A DNA stretch of 6,839 nucleotides from Planctomycetaceae bacterium (lineage in GTDB: Bacteria > Planctomycetota > Planctomycetia > Pirellulales > Pirellulaceae). The notes beneath the pieces were generated by a model. That model was not told the origin of the DNA and did no database searches. It saw only the letters and a list, made by a program, of their open reading frames with translations. The stretch is from the NCBI GenBank assembly GCA_002708345.1, contig PANG01000036.1:14638-21476 (forward strand), in the 5' to 3' direction. Position 1 is the stretch's first letter. Each line of letters begins with the position of its first letter. Positions 1 to 6,839 of this stretch are shown here, piece after piece. A program made the position numbers and the translations under genes.

Positions 1-2615
1 CCATCGTACGTCACCAGGAGCTTCCAGTTTTCCTCGATACACCAGCGATAGAGCAACGTTTTTTCCGGGTCGGCAAGGTCGGCGATGTCATGGGCATAGC
101 TTTCCCCCAGCAAGTGAGTGCGGAGCGGTCCCCGGTTGGAAGACTGGTCCACAAGGTCGATGCCTTCCATCTCTGCTGGCGGTTCAAGCCCACATGCCCG
201 CAGCACGGTAGGGGCAATATCGATACTACTGGCCAGTTGCTGGCGTAATCCTGGCCGCACCTTCCCCGGCCAGCGAACCATGATGGGTGTCCGGGTTCCA
301 CCCTCAAAGGGTGATTGCTTGGAACGAGGTGCAAAGCTCGATCGCCAGCCCTCGGGAACCTTGACATCAGGAGTCCGCTGGATCCAACCATTGTCCGTCA
401 CGAAGATGACGATCGTGTTATCTCGCTGGTCCTTCTTGTCGACGTAGTCAAGCAGCTGGCCACAGGTTTCATCAAACCACTCGCACATCGCGTAATAGCG
501 AGCCAGCTGAATCGGTCGGCCTGTCGCCTGGTACTTGCTGAGCAAACGCTCCGGAGGATTGTGGGGAGTGTGAGGCAGGAACGGGGCGTACCAGAGGAAA
601 TAGGGTTTCTCTCCTGCACCGTCAATAAAGTCAAAGATCGGCTTGAGTCCCTGGCGGCCGATCTTCAGCCCCTCGTCTCCATGCCGTCCTCCCCGGTCCG
701 GATCACCGTGTGTCATGCCGTGAGTAAAACCACCGCGGGAGAAATTTCCCTCCCACCACTTGCCACTCTGGTGACTGAGATAACCGTGCTCGGCAAGCAG
801 TTTCGGGATCGTGGCAACCCGATCAATATTGCTAATCAATTTTTCCCGTTGCTGACGAAAACCTGGATCCTTTCGTAGCGCCGCGCGTTCCACACCCTGC
901 GGGGGTGACGGGTCGTTCCCGGTAATCCTGTGCTGGTGCGGATAAAGTCCCGTGATCATCGTTGCCAGCGATGGCCGGCAGAGGGCCGTGGGAACATAAC
1001 CGCGCACGTAGGTGGCACTTTCCCGGGCCAGCTTGTCGAGCGAGGGAGTCTTGATGACAGGGTGGCCCATAAAGCCAAAATCGGTCCAGGTCTGATCATC
1101 CGAGATGATCAGGATCACGTTGGGGCGATCGCTTCCCAGTGCTCGGGCTGATTGGCGTGGACGTGCCTTTCCCTGGGACTGCTGACGGTCCTCTCGCAGC
1201 GGGAATTTCTCTCGTGAGTACTCGCCCCCGTGCTTGTCCCTGAGTTCATCACAGCGCGATCGCATCGCCGCAAGCTGGCTGGCAAACTTCGAATCGGTCG
1301 CATGGTTAACCAGCTGGTCAGGATCCTTCTCCAGGTCATGAAGAAACTCAAACGGTGGATCCTGTTCGAAATACCGTGCATAGACCCACCGTTCACCGCG
1401 GACACCCTCGTACTTGGGGATTCGACCTGGCACATGCATCAGGTGTTCACAGAGAAAATCTGTCCGCCAGCTGTCGGGCTTTTCACCTGCCAAAAGCGGC
1501 CCCAGTCCGCGGCCCTGGTACGACTCCGGCACCTCCACCCCCGCCAGCTGCACGATCGTCGCGGGAATGTCAATGTTCAGCGCAACCTGGTCAACCAGCT
1601 TTCCGCGGAAACCGTCCTTCGCCCGCGGATCATGAATCACCAGCGGCACACGCAGCGATTCCTCGTAATGGGACCATTTGCCGGCAAATCCCCGTTGTCC
1701 CAGGTAGTAACCATTATCTCCCGCGTAAACGATAATCGTGTTATCTGAAAGCCCCGCCGCCTGGAGTTGTTTCACCACGCGGCCAACCACGTGATCTACT
1801 CCACTGATCATGCGGTAATAACCACGGATATTCTTCTGGTACTTTTCTTCCGTATCCCACCGCCAGAAGTATCGCTGGCGATTCAAGCCTCGCTTGAGGA
1901 ATTCTGGATGCGACTCAAAGATCTCCGGGGCCGCCAATCGAGGCGACGCGATCGTAGAATCCTCGTAAAGATGCGCGACAGCCTTCGGGAACGGGTAATG
2001 ATTCTGCTTGTCACTGTCCTCGGCATGCGGAGCATTAAAACTGACCGACAGGCAAAACGGCTTGTCTTTCACCTGCTGGGAGAGAAACTCGATTGCCAGG
2101 TCACCGGCAATCTGGCTCACATGGCGAGTCGAACCATCTGCCTGGGGCTTGTGATACGGGTTGCGGTTCAGTGGTTTGAAATAATGGAACATCTCCTCGG
2201 TGACACCACGTTCCACCCCCACTCCGAACTTGCCCACGAATCCCGTCTGGTATCCATTCTGCTTGAGCAGCGCGGGATAACTGAGTGACGTCTGCTCTCT
2301 TGTGATTGGCACGGTTCGAAAAGTGTAACGGTGCGATCGTTCGTAGAGGCCCGTGAATATCGAGGCCCGGCTGGCAGCACAAATCGATGTCGTTACAAAC
2401 ATGTTCCGAAAACGGACACCCTCTCGCGCCAGCTCGTCCACGTTGGGTGTCTGGATTACCGGGTGCCCGGCACACCCCATCTGGTCCCAGCGTTGATCAT
2501 CGGCAAGGAAAAAGATGATGTTGGGCTGTTCGGCTCCCTGTCCAGTCGGACAGAAACTGGAAGACAAAAGCAGCGCGAGCAGCCACGTCGCTGAACGGAA
2601 GGGCAGAGGTGCCAT
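1..2615 (-). CDS. Secreted tandem (two-domain) sulfatase, 3' end beyond window
   Basis: This is one open frame of 871 codons with no stop, read directly on the minus strand; it leaves the window at the left edge, so the C-terminus is missing. Residues 1-28 look like a Sec signal peptide (basic start, then a WLLALLL core). Sulfatase domain 1 covers about residues 30-470: metal ligands D39/D40, formylglycine motif C79-A-A-S-R83, K129 (GKFG), H197 (APHAED), D300-N301-G302, K313. A hydrophilic linker (about 475-495) leads to domain 2 from about residue 496: D506/D507, C546-R-P-S-L550, K619 (GKWWEG), H682 and H685, D741-N742-G743, K766. Sulfatases hydrolyse sulfate esters using a formylglycine made from the motif Cys; the substrate here is unknown, with sulfated polysaccharide an inference. 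Domain 2 lacks the motif's usual arginine. The ATG at 2615 has GGAG 6 nt upstream. It is the last visible gene of the operon, 65 nt after the PPC gene. The sulfatase assignment is firm; activity of domain 2 is uncertain. Confidence 0.93.
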   Translation of the reverse strand, partial: MAPLPFRSATWLLALLLSSSFCPTGQGAEQPNIIFFLADDQRWDQMGCAGHPVIQTPNVDELAREGVRFRNMFVTTSICAASRASIFTGLYERSHRYTFRTVPITREQTSLSYPALLKQNGYQTGFVGKFGVGVERGVTEEMFHYFKPLNRNPYHKPQADGSTRHVSQIAGDLAIEFLSQQVKDKPFCLSVSFNAPHAEDSDKQNHYPFPKAVAHLYEDSTIASPRLAAPEIFESHPEFLKRGLNRQRYFWRWDTEEKYQKNIRGYYRMISGVDHVVGRVVKQLQAAGLSDNTIIVYAGDNGYYLGQRGFAGKWSHYEESLRVPLVIHDPRAKDGFRGKLVDQVALNIDIPATIVQLAGVEVPESYQGRGLGPLLAGEKPDSWRTDFLCEHLMHVPGRIPKYEGVRGERWVYARYFEQDPPFEFLHDLEKDPDQLVNHATDSKFASQLAAMRSRCDELRDKHGGEYSREKFPLREDRQQSQGKARPRQSARALGSDRPNVILIISDDQTWTDFGFMGHPVIKTPSLDKLARESATYVRGYVPTALCRPSLATMITGLYPHQHRITGNDPSPPQGVERAALRKDPGFRQQREKLISNIDRVATIPKLLAEHGYLSHQSGKWWEGNFSRGGFTHGMTHGDPDRGGRHGDEGLKIGRQGLKPIFDFIDGAGEKPYFLWYAPFLPHTPHNPPERLLSKYQATGRPIQLARYYAMCEWFDETCGQLLDYVDKKDQRDNTIVIFVTDNGWIQRTPDVKVPEGWRSSFAPRSKQSPFEGGTRTPIMVRWPGKVRPGLRQQLASSIDIAPTVLRACGLEPPAEMEGIDLVDQSSNRGPLRTHLLGESYAHDIADLADPEKTLLYRWCIEENWKLLVTYD

Positions 2616-2680: not shown

Positions 2681-5074
2681 CTAGCGGGCCGGCGGCAGCA
2701 CCGAGAGCCTGGCTTCCGCCGTGTACGGGTTCCCACCGGGCATTGCCGTGACCCGCACTGTAAGTGGCATGTTGAGGCGGGACGTAAGTGATTCCGCGCA
2801 GCGGATCCTGAGAACTCCCTCTCGCTGGCCAGCCGGCAACTTGACCGGATCTGCAACCATGTCCTTGATATGCTCGGGCGGCACCAGTTCCACCAGCACA
2901 TCCCCTTCCAGCCCTCGTCCCCGGTCAACAGCGAACTGGACATCCAGCGTCTCTCCCGGCTGGTAGAACATCGCCGCCGGTTTAACCTCGACCTGGAGTT
3001 GCCCCGGATCGACCAGCACGATGATCTGGTCATTCTGTTCATTCGATGTGTAACTCACCTTGTGCTTCCCACCCTGGCCATCGTCCTGGAGAGAGACTCC
3101 CATCACGACTGTTCGACTGGTCCGGCCGACTTCCATCCACGGCGCCAGCTTGATGGGGTAGGTAAACTCGGTAGCCCCCGCCGGGACGACAATCGTCGGT
3201 CCGGTCACTCCCTGAAGGTGGCGGACCTGGCGATCTCCAAGGCTGACCGTGATCGGGCCGTCATAGCCGGTCCGCTCGATCGAGAAGGTGCGGAAGAAAG
3301 TACCGCCCCGGGGAGCATACTCTGACTGGAAAATCCCCACGATCTTGTAGGGAGTGGGCATGGCAACGGCGAGGGTGAGTTCGTCGATTAACAGGTCGTC
3401 TGCGGTGGCGGCCGGCTGGGTAGCCACGCGATGGAACCTCATGTCCTCGACCATCGCCGTTCCAGAAACTTTCACCGGCACGATCCCGATGGTGGCATCG
3501 GCAGGAACCTTGAAGCCAAGGGATATCTCGTTCTTCCCTTCCGGGATCTTGTCTGAGGTAATTTCGAATCCCTCTGGAAGACCTTCCACTGACAACTGGA
3601 TTTCACCGTTAAATCCACCCTGCCGCTGTGCCGTGATCTTGATTTTTCCCTCTGCTGCCCGGTTCACGGTCAGGGTGTCCGCGGTGAGCGTGAGCTGGAA
3701 ATCTTTTTCCGGTTCCACCACTGGGCCGGCAACAAGGCGATAGGCAAAGGCCGGTCCCCCGCGGAAGGCAAAACGGTCTCGCACCTGCACCTGGTATTTT
3801 CCATCGGCAGGCACGGTAAAAGTCAACTTCGAATCGGGCTGGCCACCTTGGTCATCCGACCGGGCAAGCTCTTTCCCCTCGCCATCGAGCACCACGAGAA
3901 CAGAATCAAGCGGGGATCCCAGCCGGGCTGCTCGCACTTCCAGTTCAATCTTCTCGTCCCTGGCCGCTTCTAGCCACCAGGTATCTTTCTCGCCGGCCCT
4001 GTCAACTCGGCCGTTAAAAACAGCGGGCAACTCCCGTGCAGTGGGGTCCCCCTGGTCGACTTCCAGGTACTCTGCCACCTCGCTCGTCTCCAGCTGAAAG
4101 CTGTTGGTCAACTGGCCACCCACTTCCAGCCGCGTCAGCCAGACCGGGGTGCCATCGTCGGGGATTGTCACCCGTGCTTTTCTCGTCCCCAGGTTCTGCC
4201 CAGCCAGTTCCAGCTGCACCTGCTCTCCGCGGATCCATCCCAGCGGGTAAACTCCCTCGACATAAGCCCGATCGGTGACTGTCAGCCGGTAGACGTAGTC
4301 CTGGAGCCCGGCAAACTGCACATCATGAATACGCAACTGGTAGAGACCTGTCCGGGGGGCAACAAACGAGAGCCGCGAATCCGACCCGATGGCATCGGTA
4401 TTTTCTGCAAGTCGCCGGCCATCCGGTCCCCGCAGTTCCAGGTGTGAATCGAGCGGGGATCCGAGTCGGGCCGCCATCACCTCGCAGGTATAACCCTTCC
4501 CCTGCTCGGCCTCAAAGGTCCAGCAGTCCACATCCTCGCGAGGGAAAATACGGCCATTGATGGTGACCGGCAGTTGAACCCGGGTGGGGACTGGTGTGCC
4601 GTCGATCTCTTCCTCCACGATCTCCGGCAGATCACCAATCACGAACTTCCTGGTGGCTGTGGCTCCCTGGCTTGTCCAGACGCGCCAGCGTCGAAAGCCC
4701 AGCGGTGCATCCTCGCCAATCACCACCTCGCCTGCCTGGTCCTTGGGGTAGTCCTCCTTTGCCTGGGAGGCTGGCATCGGGATCCGTGGTCCCTCGAACC
4801 AGGTGGTACTGTCGGCCCGCTTGATGGTCAGGCTTGCCTGCACGCCCGGCCCGATCATCTGGAAAGGACACTGCTCGTGAAGGTAATGCCCTCCCACGTT
4901 GAACTTGACCGTCGTCCCCTGCTGTCCACCCGCCGGGAAAATATAAGCGGCCGAGGGAGTCTCCGCTGCCGTGACAGACGTCAACAGCGCGATCAGCAGC
5001 AGTGGTATCCAGTGACGGCGTTGAGAACAAGTCGTTGACATCAAACCCCCGGGAGAATCACTTCCCCAGGCCAC
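2681..5074 (-). CDS. Secreted protein with two PPC domains and Ig-like modules
   Basis: This encodes a 797-residue non-enzymatic-looking exported protein. A Sec signal peptide has its basic region at QRRHW (18-22), its hydrophobic core at about 23-36 and likely cleavage near A36/A37. An IPT/TIG-like beta segment (about 43-83, with PAGGQQGTTV) follows. PPC domain 1 is about 169-267, a second IPT-like segment about 273-305, and PPC domain 2 about 349-448. Beta-rich, probably Ig-like regions fill 457-540 and 690-795. Both PPC domains contain an identical AARLGSPLDS. PPC domains occur in many secreted proteins and are thought to aid folding, targeting or substrate binding; no catalytic motif is visible. 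Start choice: the GTG at 5074 shares one base with the DUF1501 stop (TAGTG) and has GAGGAG 8 nt upstream, suggesting translational coupling. An ATG at 5041 would give a shorter, more typical signal peptide and cannot be excluded. Its role is probably surface binding or scaffolding for the neighbouring enzymes (inference). Confidence 0.88.
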   Translation of the reverse strand: MAWGSDSPGGLMSTTCSQRRHWIPLLLIALLTSVTAAETPSAAYIFPAGGQQGTTVKFNVGGHYLHEQCPFQMIGPGVQASLTIKRADSTTWFEGPRIPMPASQAKEDYPKDQAGEVVIGEDAPLGFRRWRVWTSQGATATRKFVIGDLPEIVEEEIDGTPVPTRVQLPVTINGRIFPREDVDCWTFEAEQGKGYTCEVMAARLGSPLDSHLELRGPDGRRLAENTDAIGSDSRLSFVAPRTGLYQLRIHDVQFAGLQDYVYRLTVTDRAYVEGVYPLGWIRGEQVQLELAGQNLGTRKARVTIPDDGTPVWLTRLEVGGQLTNSFQLETSEVAEYLEVDQGDPTARELPAVFNGRVDRAGEKDTWWLEAARDEKIELEVRAARLGSPLDSVLVVLDGEGKELARSDDQGGQPDSKLTFTVPADGKYQVQVRDRFAFRGGPAFAYRLVAGPVVEPEKDFQLTLTADTLTVNRAAEGKIKITAQRQGGFNGEIQLSVEGLPEGFEITSDKIPEGKNEISLGFKVPADATIGIVPVKVSGTAMVEDMRFHRVATQPAATADDLLIDELTLAVAMPTPYKIVGIFQSEYAPRGGTFFRTFSIERTGYDGPITVSLGDRQVRHLQGVTGPTIVVPAGATEFTYPIKLAPWMEVGRTSRTVVMGVSLQDDGQGGKHKVSYTSNEQNDQIIVLVDPGQLQVEVKPAAMFYQPGETLDVQFAVDRGRGLEGDVLVELVPPEHIKDMVADPVKLPAGQREGVLRIRCAESLTSRLNMPLTVRVTAMPGGNPYTAEARLSVLPPAR
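3902..3931 (-). repeat. Conserved motif copy in PPC domain 2
   Basis: These 30 bases encode AARLGSPLDS (residues 382-391 of the PPC protein). They match the stretch at 4445-4474 at 25 of 30 bases by eye. The five differences leave all ten residues unchanged. This is a family-typical PPC motif seen twice, not a mobile or regulatory repeat. Confidence 0.65.
4445..4474 (-). repeat. Conserved motif copy in PPC domain 1
   Basis: These 30 bases encode AARLGSPLDS (residues 201-210 of the PPC protein), identical in protein to the copy in PPC domain 2 and lying 543 bases from it. The flanking PPC sequence is clearly more diverged than this core. Confidence 0.65.
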
Positions 5075-6414
5075 TAGAAAAGCTCCTCGATGACCCGGCC
5101 TTCGCCTGGCACGATGGGTATCGGGCGTCCCTCTGCTGTCCGGTATTCCGTTTTTGGATCGATACCCAGTCCATGGTAAATGGTCGCAGCCAGGTCGGCC
5201 GGTCCAAAGGGTGTCGTGGCAGGCTTCTCGGCTCGCTCATTAGAAGCTCCCACTACGCGGCCTCCCTGGATACCACCTCCTGCCATGGCAATCGCGCTGC
5301 TGGGACCCCAGTGGTCCCGTCCGGCGGAGGGGTTAACACGTGGCGTGCGACCAAACTCACCGGTCACCAGGACCATCGTCGTCTCGAGCATCCGCCGTTC
5401 CTCCAGGTCCCGCAGCAGCGTTGCAAGGGCACTATCAAGTTGCCAGAGCAGGTCATTCTTGAGGACGTGGAAGTTGTTGTAATGGGTATCCCAGTTACTG
5501 TGATCGATGAACGTGCAACGGACACCGGCCTCCACCAGTCGCCGTGCCATCAGGCAAGACTGTCCCAGGGAATGACGGCCATACTGGTCCCGCAGCTTGT
5601 CCGCCTCACGATGAATATTAAAAGCAGCCTTGGTCGCACTGGAGGTCATCAGGTCGAATGCCTTTTGCTGGTAGGTGCTCATTGCCCGCACCCCCTTGTT
5701 GGCTCGCGCCTCTTCAGCTCGCTCAAAGCGATTGACACGTGAAAGCAGTTCCCTCCGGGAGCCAAGTCGATCGGCGGCAATATCGATCGGCGGGACAAGG
5801 TCGGGTACGGCAAAATTGGGAGCATTCGGATCCGCCTCAACGACAAACGGGGCAAACGAGGAACCGAGGTCTGCCGACCCGCCACTGTTATGCATCTTCG
5901 GCAGGCAGACGTAGGGCGGTACCGGCCCACGGGGCCCCAGTTGCTGGGCGATAACCGAACCGTAGCAGGGCTTCTGATTATTCGGCTTCAATCCGGCGTT
6001 GAATCCCCCCTGGGGATGGTAGCCGGTCAGCATCCAGTGGTCGGCCGGTCCGTGGCCAGAGTTGCTGTGACCGAAGGAGCGAACCAGCGAGAGCTTGTCC
6101 ATCTGCTGCGCCAGTTGCGGGAGGTGCTCACAGAGCTGGATTCCTGGCACGTTGGTGTTAATCGGATCAAATTCGCCTCGGAATTCCGCCGGGGCATCCG
6201 GCTTCATATCCCAGGTGTCGATGGTGGAAAGTCCTCCCTGCAGGAAGACAATGATCAACGACACATCACTTTTTGATTTTCCCTTTTCCGCTGCAATCGC
6301 CTTTTGCTGGAGCAACTGGGGCAGGGTAACACCCATTCCAAAAAGCCCCGCCGCCCCGTAGCGCAACATGTCACGACGACTGGTTCCATCACAGAATGTC
6401 TTCTGTCGCTTCAT
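5074..6414 (-). CDS. DUF1501 domain-containing protein, probably Tat-exported
   Basis: This 446-residue protein, counted from the ATG at 6414, is a full-length DUF1501 member, a family abundant in Planctomycetota and of unknown function. Its fold is placed in the alkaline-phosphatase-like superfamily that also holds sulfatases. The N-terminus carries a twin-arginine-type motif SRRDML (12-17) followed by a hydrophobic stretch to about residue 42, which suggests Tat export of a folded, possibly metal-loaded protein. Family motifs visible in order are FLQGG (57-61), STIDTWDMKP (63-72), GHGPADHW (120-127), DHSNWDTH (304-311), GEFGRTPR (352-359) and GRDHW (365-369); their Asp and His residues are plausible metal ligands, which is inference. 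Start choice: GGAGGAG ends 6 nt before the ATG at 6414. A GTG at 6432 and an ATG at 6420 are in frame, but the first has no upstream purine run and the second abuts it. The gene begins 24 nt after the DUF1553 stop, and its stop overlaps the next GTG by one base. Confidence 0.95.
   Translation of the reverse strand: MKRQKTFCDGTSRRDMLRYGAAGLFGMGVTLPQLLQQKAIAAEKGKSKSDVSLIIVFLQGGLSTIDTWDMKPDAPAEFRGEFDPINTNVPGIQLCEHLPQLAQQMDKLSLVRSFGHSNSGHGPADHWMLTGYHPQGGFNAGLKPNNQKPCYGSVIAQQLGPRGPVPPYVCLPKMHNSGGSADLGSSFAPFVVEADPNAPNFAVPDLVPPIDIAADRLGSRRELLSRVNRFERAEEARANKGVRAMSTYQQKAFDLMTSSATKAAFNIHREADKLRDQYGRHSLGQSCLMARRLVEAGVRCTFIDHSNWDTHYNNFHVLKNDLLWQLDSALATLLRDLEERRMLETTMVLVTGEFGRTPRVNPSAGRDHWGPSSAIAMAGGGIQGGRVVGASNERAEKPATTPFGPADLAATIYHGLGIDPKTEYRTAEGRPIPIVPGEGRVIEELF
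5083..5088 (-). promoter_or_regulatory. Putative ribosome binding site for the PPC gene, inside DUF1501
   Basis: GAGGAG on the minus strand lies 8 nt before the GTG at 5074 and also encodes the Glu-Glu near the C-terminus of the DUF1501 protein. It favours the overlapping GTG start. The alternative ATG at 5041 has only a GGGGG run 4 nt upstream. Confidence 0.45.
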
Positions 6415-6420
6415 CGTCAT

Positions 6421-6427
6421 CTCCTCC
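6421..6427 (-). promoter_or_regulatory. Ribosome binding site of the DUF1501 gene
   Basis: GGAGGAG on the minus strand sits 6 nt before the ATG at 6414 and decides between three in-frame starts (6432 GTG, 6420 ATG, 6414 ATG). It lies in the short gap after the DUF1553 stop codon. Confidence 0.7.
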
Positions 6428-6438
6428 GGCACAGGCTG

Positions 6439-6839
6439 CTAGTGGTTAAACATAAACTCCAGCGAGTTCATCATGCTCCATGAAAGATCTTCGGCCGCAT
6501 GACGTCGGTCGGGTTGGCTGTTTATATATTCTACGCCATTTTTCTTCTCATTCGAATCCGGAAATCGAGCGAAAAATGTCAGGTAGAGTTCATCAACAAG
6601 GTGGTCATTTTCCGGGTAACTGGCAAGTATTTCGGCAACCTGACCGCCTGCGTGTGAAATTTTCCTGTGAATTACCGGTGAATTAAGCACGTGCAGAACC
6701 TGTCCCACCGTCGGTTCTGAAATACGCTCGCAGTCACATGCCGTGACTCGTGATGGTCGGCCAAACAGCTTCAGCATGTAATGCGGCACCTGGCTATCCC
6801 AGAGCTGGATCGCCCGACTCCCTTCCGGCACACCGTCAA
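6439..6839 (-). CDS. DUF1553 (PSD1) protein, C-terminal part only
   Basis: The frame is open to the right edge and gives the last 132 residues of a larger protein; the N-terminus is outside the window. The residues match the typical end of PSD1/DUF1553 proteins: LFGRPSR, then CDCERISEPT with the paired cysteines, VLHVLNSP, DELYLTFFARFP, and a closing MNSLEFMFNH. In Planctomycetota such proteins usually carry an N-terminal signal, often a cytochrome c-like segment (PSCyt1), and a DUF1549 (PSCyt2) domain before DUF1553; none of that can be seen here. Their biochemical role is unknown. The DUF1553-DUF1501 order with a 24-nt gap is the common arrangement for this pair and suggests co-transcription and joint function. 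An in-frame GTG at 6831 is internal to the domain and should not be taken as the start. Confidence 0.92.
   Translation of the reverse strand, partial: DGVPEGSRAIQLWDSQVPHYMLKLFGRPSRVTACDCERISEPTVGQVLHVLNSPVIHRKISHAGGQVAEILASYPENDHLVDELYLTFFARFPDSNEKKNGVEYINSQPDRRHAAEDLSWSMMNSLEFMFNH

What the first reader, a model, noticed from the sequence alone, without database searches (positions are those of the whole stretch)
1..2615. Two sulfatases fused in one open reading frame
Read on the minus strand from ATG 2615, the frame runs 871 codons to the window edge without a stop. It holds two complete sets of sulfatase motifs: C79/D300/K313 in domain 1 and C546/D741/K766 in domain 2. All key codons sit in the same phase. 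Most S1 sulfatases are single-domain, and neighbouring sulfatases are normally separate genes. The linker (about residues 475-495) is hydrophilic, with no second signal peptide, so both domains would be exported on one leader. A bifunctional enzyme removing two sulfates from one polymer, or a catalytic plus binding pair, is possible. The domains are clearly different subfamilies, not a recent duplication.
Basis: partly seen in the sequence, partly recalled or inferred. Interest (0 to 1): 0.7.

Follow-up and report, generated by a model that had tools for sequence, protein, structure and literature searches.

The report
Two-headed sulfatase, second head atypical
The window encodes most of a probably secreted protein made of two different sulfatase-type domains in one chain; the joint is real and shared by relatives, and the second domain belongs to a group that has lost the signature arginine thought to be needed to switch sulfatases on.

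Summary
The fusion is real. An 871-codon minus-strand frame (3-2615) holds two sulfatase folds; a 98% identical relative is 934 aa, so about 63 residues lie beyond the edge. The joint is no sequencing error: contigs from other genome bins align without gaps across the linker, and both domains show equal purifying selection (dN/dS 0.09-0.10; linker higher). The same two domain types also occur fused in the opposite order, as adjacent genes and apart.

The parts
3..2615 (-). Open reading frame of the two-domain sulfatase (871 codons in the window; about 63 more expected beyond the edge)
   Evidence: P0002 (98% identical) is 934 aa
2532..2615 (-). Putative Sec signal peptide, residues 1-28 (judged by eye, no predictor run)
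   Evidence: sequence; helix 7-19 in the model
1206..2534 (-). Domain A, residues 28-470, S1_25-like sulfatase
2367..2381 (-). Domain A activation motif C79-A-A-S-R83
2223..2231 (-). Domain A K129-F130-G131, the Lys-x-Gly hallmark of S1_25
   Evidence: PMC6315715 passages
1713..1718 (-). Domain A metal ligands D300-N301
1677..1679 (-). Domain A sulfate-binding lysine K313 (role by recalled analogy)
1131..1205 (-). Linker, residues 471-495, variable and hydrophilic; dN/dS 0.43 (L001), 0.54 (L002), 0.26 (L015, 20 codons) against 0.09-0.10 in the domains
   Evidence: low pLDDT at 482-495
3..1130 (-). Domain B, residues 496 to the window edge, Leu-signature sulfatase domain (C-terminus cut off by the window)
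966..980 (-). Domain B non-canonical activation motif C546-R-P-S-L550 (Leu in place of Arg)
753..761 (-). Domain B K619-W620-W621 (Trp in place of the His of K-x-H)
570..572 (-). Domain B H682 (position of the acid/leaving-group His; role by recalled analogy with arylsulfatase A)
390..395 (-). Domain B metal ligands D741-N742
318..320 (-). Domain B sulfate-binding lysine K766 (role by recalled analogy)
2681..5074 (-). Upstream gene with PPC (pre-peptidase C-terminal) domains, 797 aa
5074..6432 (-). Upstream gene DUF1501, 452 aa
6439..6837 (-). C-terminal part of a PSD1 (DUF1553) gene, open at the window edge

Best explanation
A secreted two-headed sulfatase. Domain A is an S1_25-type, formylglycine-dependent exo-3-O-sulfatase of a 6-deoxyhexose (fucose or rhamnose). 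Domain B is a second full sulfatase fold from a conserved Leu-signature branch (C-x-P-S-L, K-x-W) that keeps the metal site, the cysteine and the sulfate-binding lysines, and probably removes a second sulfate from the same algal or EPS-type glycan, or from the product of A. The flexible linker keeps both heads on one substrate after export on one leader. Shown here: the fusion, its conservation, both predicted folds, the residue pattern. Inferred: export, catalysis by both heads, the sugar, and conversion of Cys546 to formylglycine without the usual Arg.
Against: B lacks both residues that handle formylglycine: Arg (Leu) and His (Trp). The SulfAtlas paper found nine Ile/Leu sequences among 4,058 and suggested that they may be inactive. 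Two of 96 B-A domain A sequences have Gly at the cysteine in the alignment. The two-domain model does not place the heads (pTM 0.57). Foldseek ranks 6hr5 only fifth by E-value for the two-domain model. No NCBIfam model reaches its cut-off for this protein. Substrate evidence is indirect: a GH78-type rhamnosidase lies near the gene in only 3 of 79 loci. One of 8 genomes has no FGE hit, and none of 8 has an anSME hit over the cut-off.
Confidence: 0.58

Rival explanations
1. Domain B is a pseudo-sulfatase: it is not converted to formylglycine and serves to bind or position the sulfated glycan for domain A.
For: Arg replaced by Leu in 165 of 165 and 20 of 20 sequences, and K-x-H turned to K-x-W. 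The SulfAtlas authors suggested that Leu/Ile forms may be inactive. 52 of 55 readable other sulfatases in the fetched loci keep Arg.
Against: The cysteine, both metal-ligand pairs and the lysines are kept. B evolves under the same constraint as A. B is mostly a gene of its own: 46 of 55 matches in the phylum sample lie in frames under 600 aa (at least one of them, G009/L015, is a fusion cut by the contig end), which does not fit a helper module for A.
Confidence: 0.25
2. Domain B is an active hydrolase of the alkaline phosphatase superfamily but not a sulfatase (for example a phosphomono- or diesterase or phosphonate esterase).
For: Pfam Phosphodiest also matches, best stretch residues 500-573 (60 bits). 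The formylglycine-handling residues are lost.
Against: For B-only proteins Pfam Sulfatase scores far above Phosphodiest (for example 150 against 40 bits in L046). The 50 structural neighbours shown are all sulfatases or sulfamidases. The two sulfate-binding lysines are kept.
Confidence: 0.1
3. The fusion only fixes co-export and equal amounts; the two heads act on unrelated substrates.
For: The two-domain model does not place the heads against each other (pTM 0.57). A and B also occur fused to other partners (TPR-like, 3-keto-disaccharide hydrolase, esterase, M1 peptidase).
Against: The pair is found fused in both orders, as separate genes within 3 kb in 7 of 79 loci, and often in the same genome when unlinked: A at 430 bits or more in 13 of 17 genomes of B-only loci, B in 20 of 26 genomes of A-only loci (26 of 30 such loci tested; no background rate measured).
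Confidence: 0.06
4. Artefact: a sequencing or assembly error hides a stop or joins two genes.
For: The gene runs off the window edge and no genome is held.
Against: Gapless alignment through the linker to L001 and L002; P0002-P0004 encode the fused protein at 82-98% identity.
Confidence: 0.01

Closest known systems
S1_25 sulfatases: P36_S1_25 of Formosa agariphila (PDB 6hr5) and SWF4 of Wenyingzhuangia fucanilytica
   Different: Here the partner is a second sulfatase domain; the substrate of the window protein is untested
Two-sulfatase-domain gene of planctomycetes P1 and P2 from Porphyra (PMC4807772, passage read)
   Same: One gene, two sulfatase domains of different origin, in planctomycetes
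The nine Arg-to-Leu/Ile FGly-sulfatase-like sequences of Planctomycetes and Lentisphaerae in the SulfAtlas paper (PMC5066984, section 7 and passages read)
   Same: Leu (or Ile) where the signature has Arg, in Planctomycetes and relatives
   Different: Treated there as rare and possibly inactive, in a set chosen partly by presence of the signature; here a branch with Leu fixed and the rest of the active site kept. Whether those nine belong to this branch was not tested
S1_16 sulfatase 9fo1
   Same: Best sequence match of domain B in the PDB (126 bits)
   Different: Only 28% identical in the structural alignment; 9fo1 has the usual Arg (alignment)

Membership tests
S1_25 (domain A) | Closest by sequence and structure to a characterised S1_25 enzyme | tested here: met
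S1_25 (domain A) | Gly in place of the conserved His of K-x-H (KFG), reported as a subfamily trait | tested here: met
   K129-F130-G131; 46 of 46 A-B sequences have Gly, but only 33 of 96 B-A and 27 of 40 others; trait from PMC6315715 passages
S1_25 (domain A) | Assignment by the SulfAtlas profiles | not testable with these tools
   SulfAtlas not held
S1_25 (domain A) | Exo-3-O-desulfation of fucose or rhamnose | not testable with these tools
   needs enzyme assay
FGly-dependent sulfatase, family S1 (domain B) | Sulfatase fold and Pfam Sulfatase match | tested here: met
FGly-dependent sulfatase, family S1 (domain B) | Metal ligands D-D and D-N, sulfate-binding lysines | tested here: met
FGly-dependent sulfatase, family S1 (domain B) | C/S-x-P/A-x-R activation signature | tested here: not met
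   C-R-P-S-L; Leu in 165 of 165 and 20 of 20
FGly-dependent sulfatase, family S1 (domain B) | His of G-K-x-H | tested here: not met
   Trp in 165 of 166 and 20 of 20
FGly-dependent sulfatase, family S1 (domain B) | Cysteine converted to formylglycine | not testable with these tools
   needs peptide mass spectrometry

The most novel reading that the evidence does not exclude
Domain B represents a large, overlooked branch of sulfatase-fold enzymes that works without the canonical formylglycine signature: either a maturase recognises C-x-P-S-L, or the enzyme uses an unmodified cysteine and a different active-site arrangement (for instance the Arg next to the cysteine, 18 of 20, or its R-H-G-D segment, Arg 19 of 20 and His 16 of 20). 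Fused to an S1_25 head, it would form two-headed enzymes for multiply sulfated 6-deoxyhexose glycans.
Probability: 0.17. Interest if true: 0.75.

Novelty: new variant of a known kind. Interest (0 to 1): 0.45.

Why it matters
The Arg of the C-x-P-x-R signature is described as an essential, formylglycine-stabilising residue (PMC5066984), and motif-based annotation uses it. A branch in which Leu is fixed while the rest of the active site is kept gives a natural test of whether that Arg is required, and suggests that such proteins are missed by motif searches. The pairing with an S1_25-like domain in both orders points to a shared substrate and makes these proteins good candidates for finding what the branch does.

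Tried and rejected
Sequencing error or assembly joint: rejected. Recent tandem duplication: rejected, A and B of P0002 share 124 of 375 aligned residues. The two domains always being separate genes in close relatives: rejected, the close relatives are fused. One single origin of the A-B order: not settled. Holding the A-B rows together is rejected on the domain A tree (p-AU 0.00012, 21 against 85 rows) but not on the domain B tree (p-AU 0.27, 20 against 76 rows). These are quick trees of thinned sets (A 181 to 108 rows, B 165 to 97); long rows L033 and P0119 were taken out of the A test and P0119 out of the B test, while the long A-B row L014 stayed in. Placement of the two heads: not resolved. 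Substrate from neighbours: 3 of 79 loci gave a rhamnosidase of the type searched. Motif literature search (CXPXL, C-X-P-X-L, CRPSL, CxPSL): one unrelated paper. Other searches: from the capped listings I opened seven papers, each as passages or one section, and judged the rest by title only. So this does not show that nothing is in print; subscription papers are mostly missing. PMC6388578 (passages) reports fusions of sulfatases with glycosidase domains and says that conservation of key residues, Arg55 among them, in 2,040 PVC sulfatases matched the SulfAtlas set; that is no support for the Leu form being common.

Corrections made on the way: mis-sorted up to three A-B proteins whose B match is split (P0102, P0103, P0107), corrected; their A domains stand among the 40 'others' and their B domains are not counted. 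The L002 rows used a wrong offset and are void; one search replaces them. The W of K-x-W is biased in the loci, because a scan pattern contained GKWWE. The one search set was not picked by motif, but its profile was built from Leu members and a strict cut was used, so Arg-bearing distant relatives would fall outside it.

Full report
Observation. The minus-strand frame from ATG 2615 runs 871 codons to the window edge. Pfam finds Sulfatase in two stretches and SGSH_C in two; of seven NCBIfam models listed none reaches its cut-off. The closest homologue, P0002, is 98% identical over the whole query and 934 aa long, so about 63 residues are missing.

The joint is real. L001 (another genome bin, 88% identical) aligns in one gapless block over 871 residues, and L002 over 778. 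dN/dS against L001 is 0.099 in A, 0.099 in B and 0.43 in the linker; against L002 0.093, 0.090 and 0.54; against L015, whose contig begins inside the linker, 0.090 in B and 0.26 over 20 linker codons. Two equally constrained domains in one frame around a more relaxed linker is what a working fused protein should show.

The pair in nature. Among 121 proteins (the window's plus the best 120 of 2,181 hits, a sample biased to two-domain proteins), 34 are A-first and 87 B-first; P0039 is a fragment holding only the end of A. Three of the B-first proteins (P0031, P0051, P0055) have three Pfam Sulfatase stretches. In three of the 7 (L033, L075, L076) frames overlap or B is split, so a broken fusion is possible there, and L015 among the 47 is a fusion cut by the contig end. 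In a sample of 195 genomes of the phylum of L003's genome, 42 have a B domain at the cut used, with 55 matches: 9 of 55 lie in frames over 800 aa and 46 of 55 in frames under 600 aa (at least one of these, G009, the contig-cut L015), so B is usually a gene of its own (for most genomes only 8 candidates were scored, so counts are lower bounds; the long frames were not all checked for A). Of 20 such single-frame B genes read with their flanks, 2 (L082, L085) have an A gene within 3 kb. When unlinked, the partners often share a genome: A at 430 bits or more in 13 of 17 genomes of B-only loci (a fourteenth has only a 275-bit match, taken as another sulfatase), B in 20 of 26 genomes of A-only loci (26 of 30 such loci tested). 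No background rate was measured, and these are sulfatase-rich bacteria.

Evolution. Pairwise distances of A and B within 145 fused proteins correlate at r 0.94 (0.965 within A-B, 0.963 within B-A; near-duplicates not removed), and none of 500 permutations reaches this. The A-B label needs at least 4 changes on the A tree and 5 on the B tree. One clade of A-B rows is rejected on the A tree (p-AU 0.00012) but not on the B tree (p-AU 0.27). The order has probably been made more than once, or A halves have been exchanged; a single origin on the B side is not excluded.

Maturation. FGE-type proteins (PF03781, a broad family) are found in 7 of 8 genomes carrying A and B (seven with A-B fusions, one with adjacent genes, L048; none in L016's genome). 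Anaerobic maturases are over the cut-off in 0 of 8, with weak matches in 7 of 8. Domain A should be matured by FGE; whether FGE accepts C-R-P-S-L is the open question.

Setting. Upstream on the same strand lie a PSD1 gene (cut), DUF1501 and a PPC-domain gene. Of 16 A-B loci, L003 (65% identical) has the same order PSD1-DUF1501-PPC-AB with gaps of 30 bases or less; L004, L005, L007 and L013 have it with a second DUF1501 and, where typed (L004), a Gfo/Idh-type oxidoreductase in between; L006 and L019 have parts of it; the other nine show none of it upstream, several on short contigs. PMC5615132 (passages) reports sulfatases often beside planctomycete cytochrome genes and suggests a role in carbohydrate breakdown.

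Prior art. A planctomycete gene with two sulfatase domains was reported in 2016 (PMC4807772 passage), and the SulfAtlas paper split proteins with several sulfatase modules and noted nine Leu/Ile forms that may be inactive (PMC5066984 passages and section 7). The finding is therefore a variant of a known kind; what is added is that the Leu form is a conserved branch with an otherwise kept active site, paired with S1_25-like domains in both orders.

Noticed in passing
window 2681-6837: PSD1, DUF1501 and PPC-domain genes precede the sulfatase on the same strand; the same order recurs in L003 and, with extra genes, in L004, L005, L007 and L013.
   Followed up: partly
P0031, P0051, P0055: Proteins of about 1,420-1,430 aa with three Pfam Sulfatase stretches (B, A and a third). 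The third has C-R-P-S-R in the two sequences printed, P0031 and P0051.
   Followed up: partly
L046, L049, L055, L066, L017, L028, L038: B domains fused to a putative esterase (L046, L049, L055) or an M1 peptidase (L066), and A domains fused to a 3-keto-disaccharide hydrolase (L017) or TPR-like repeats (L028, L038).
   Followed up: partly
L015: A contig labelled Bacillota carries a contig-cut fusion end 92% identical to the window; its genome (G009) was drawn as a member of the same phylum as L003's genome, so the record title looks wrong.
   Followed up: no
B-A proteins: In the alignment 2 of 96 B-A sequences have Gly in place of the domain A cysteine, and 62 of 96 have Val where the A motif has Ala (C-x-V-x-R).
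   Followed up: no
L095-L098: A more distant branch of single B genes (367-430 bits) with V-C-[SR]-P-S-L and G-K-[FYH]-W also keeps Leu and Trp.
   Followed up: no
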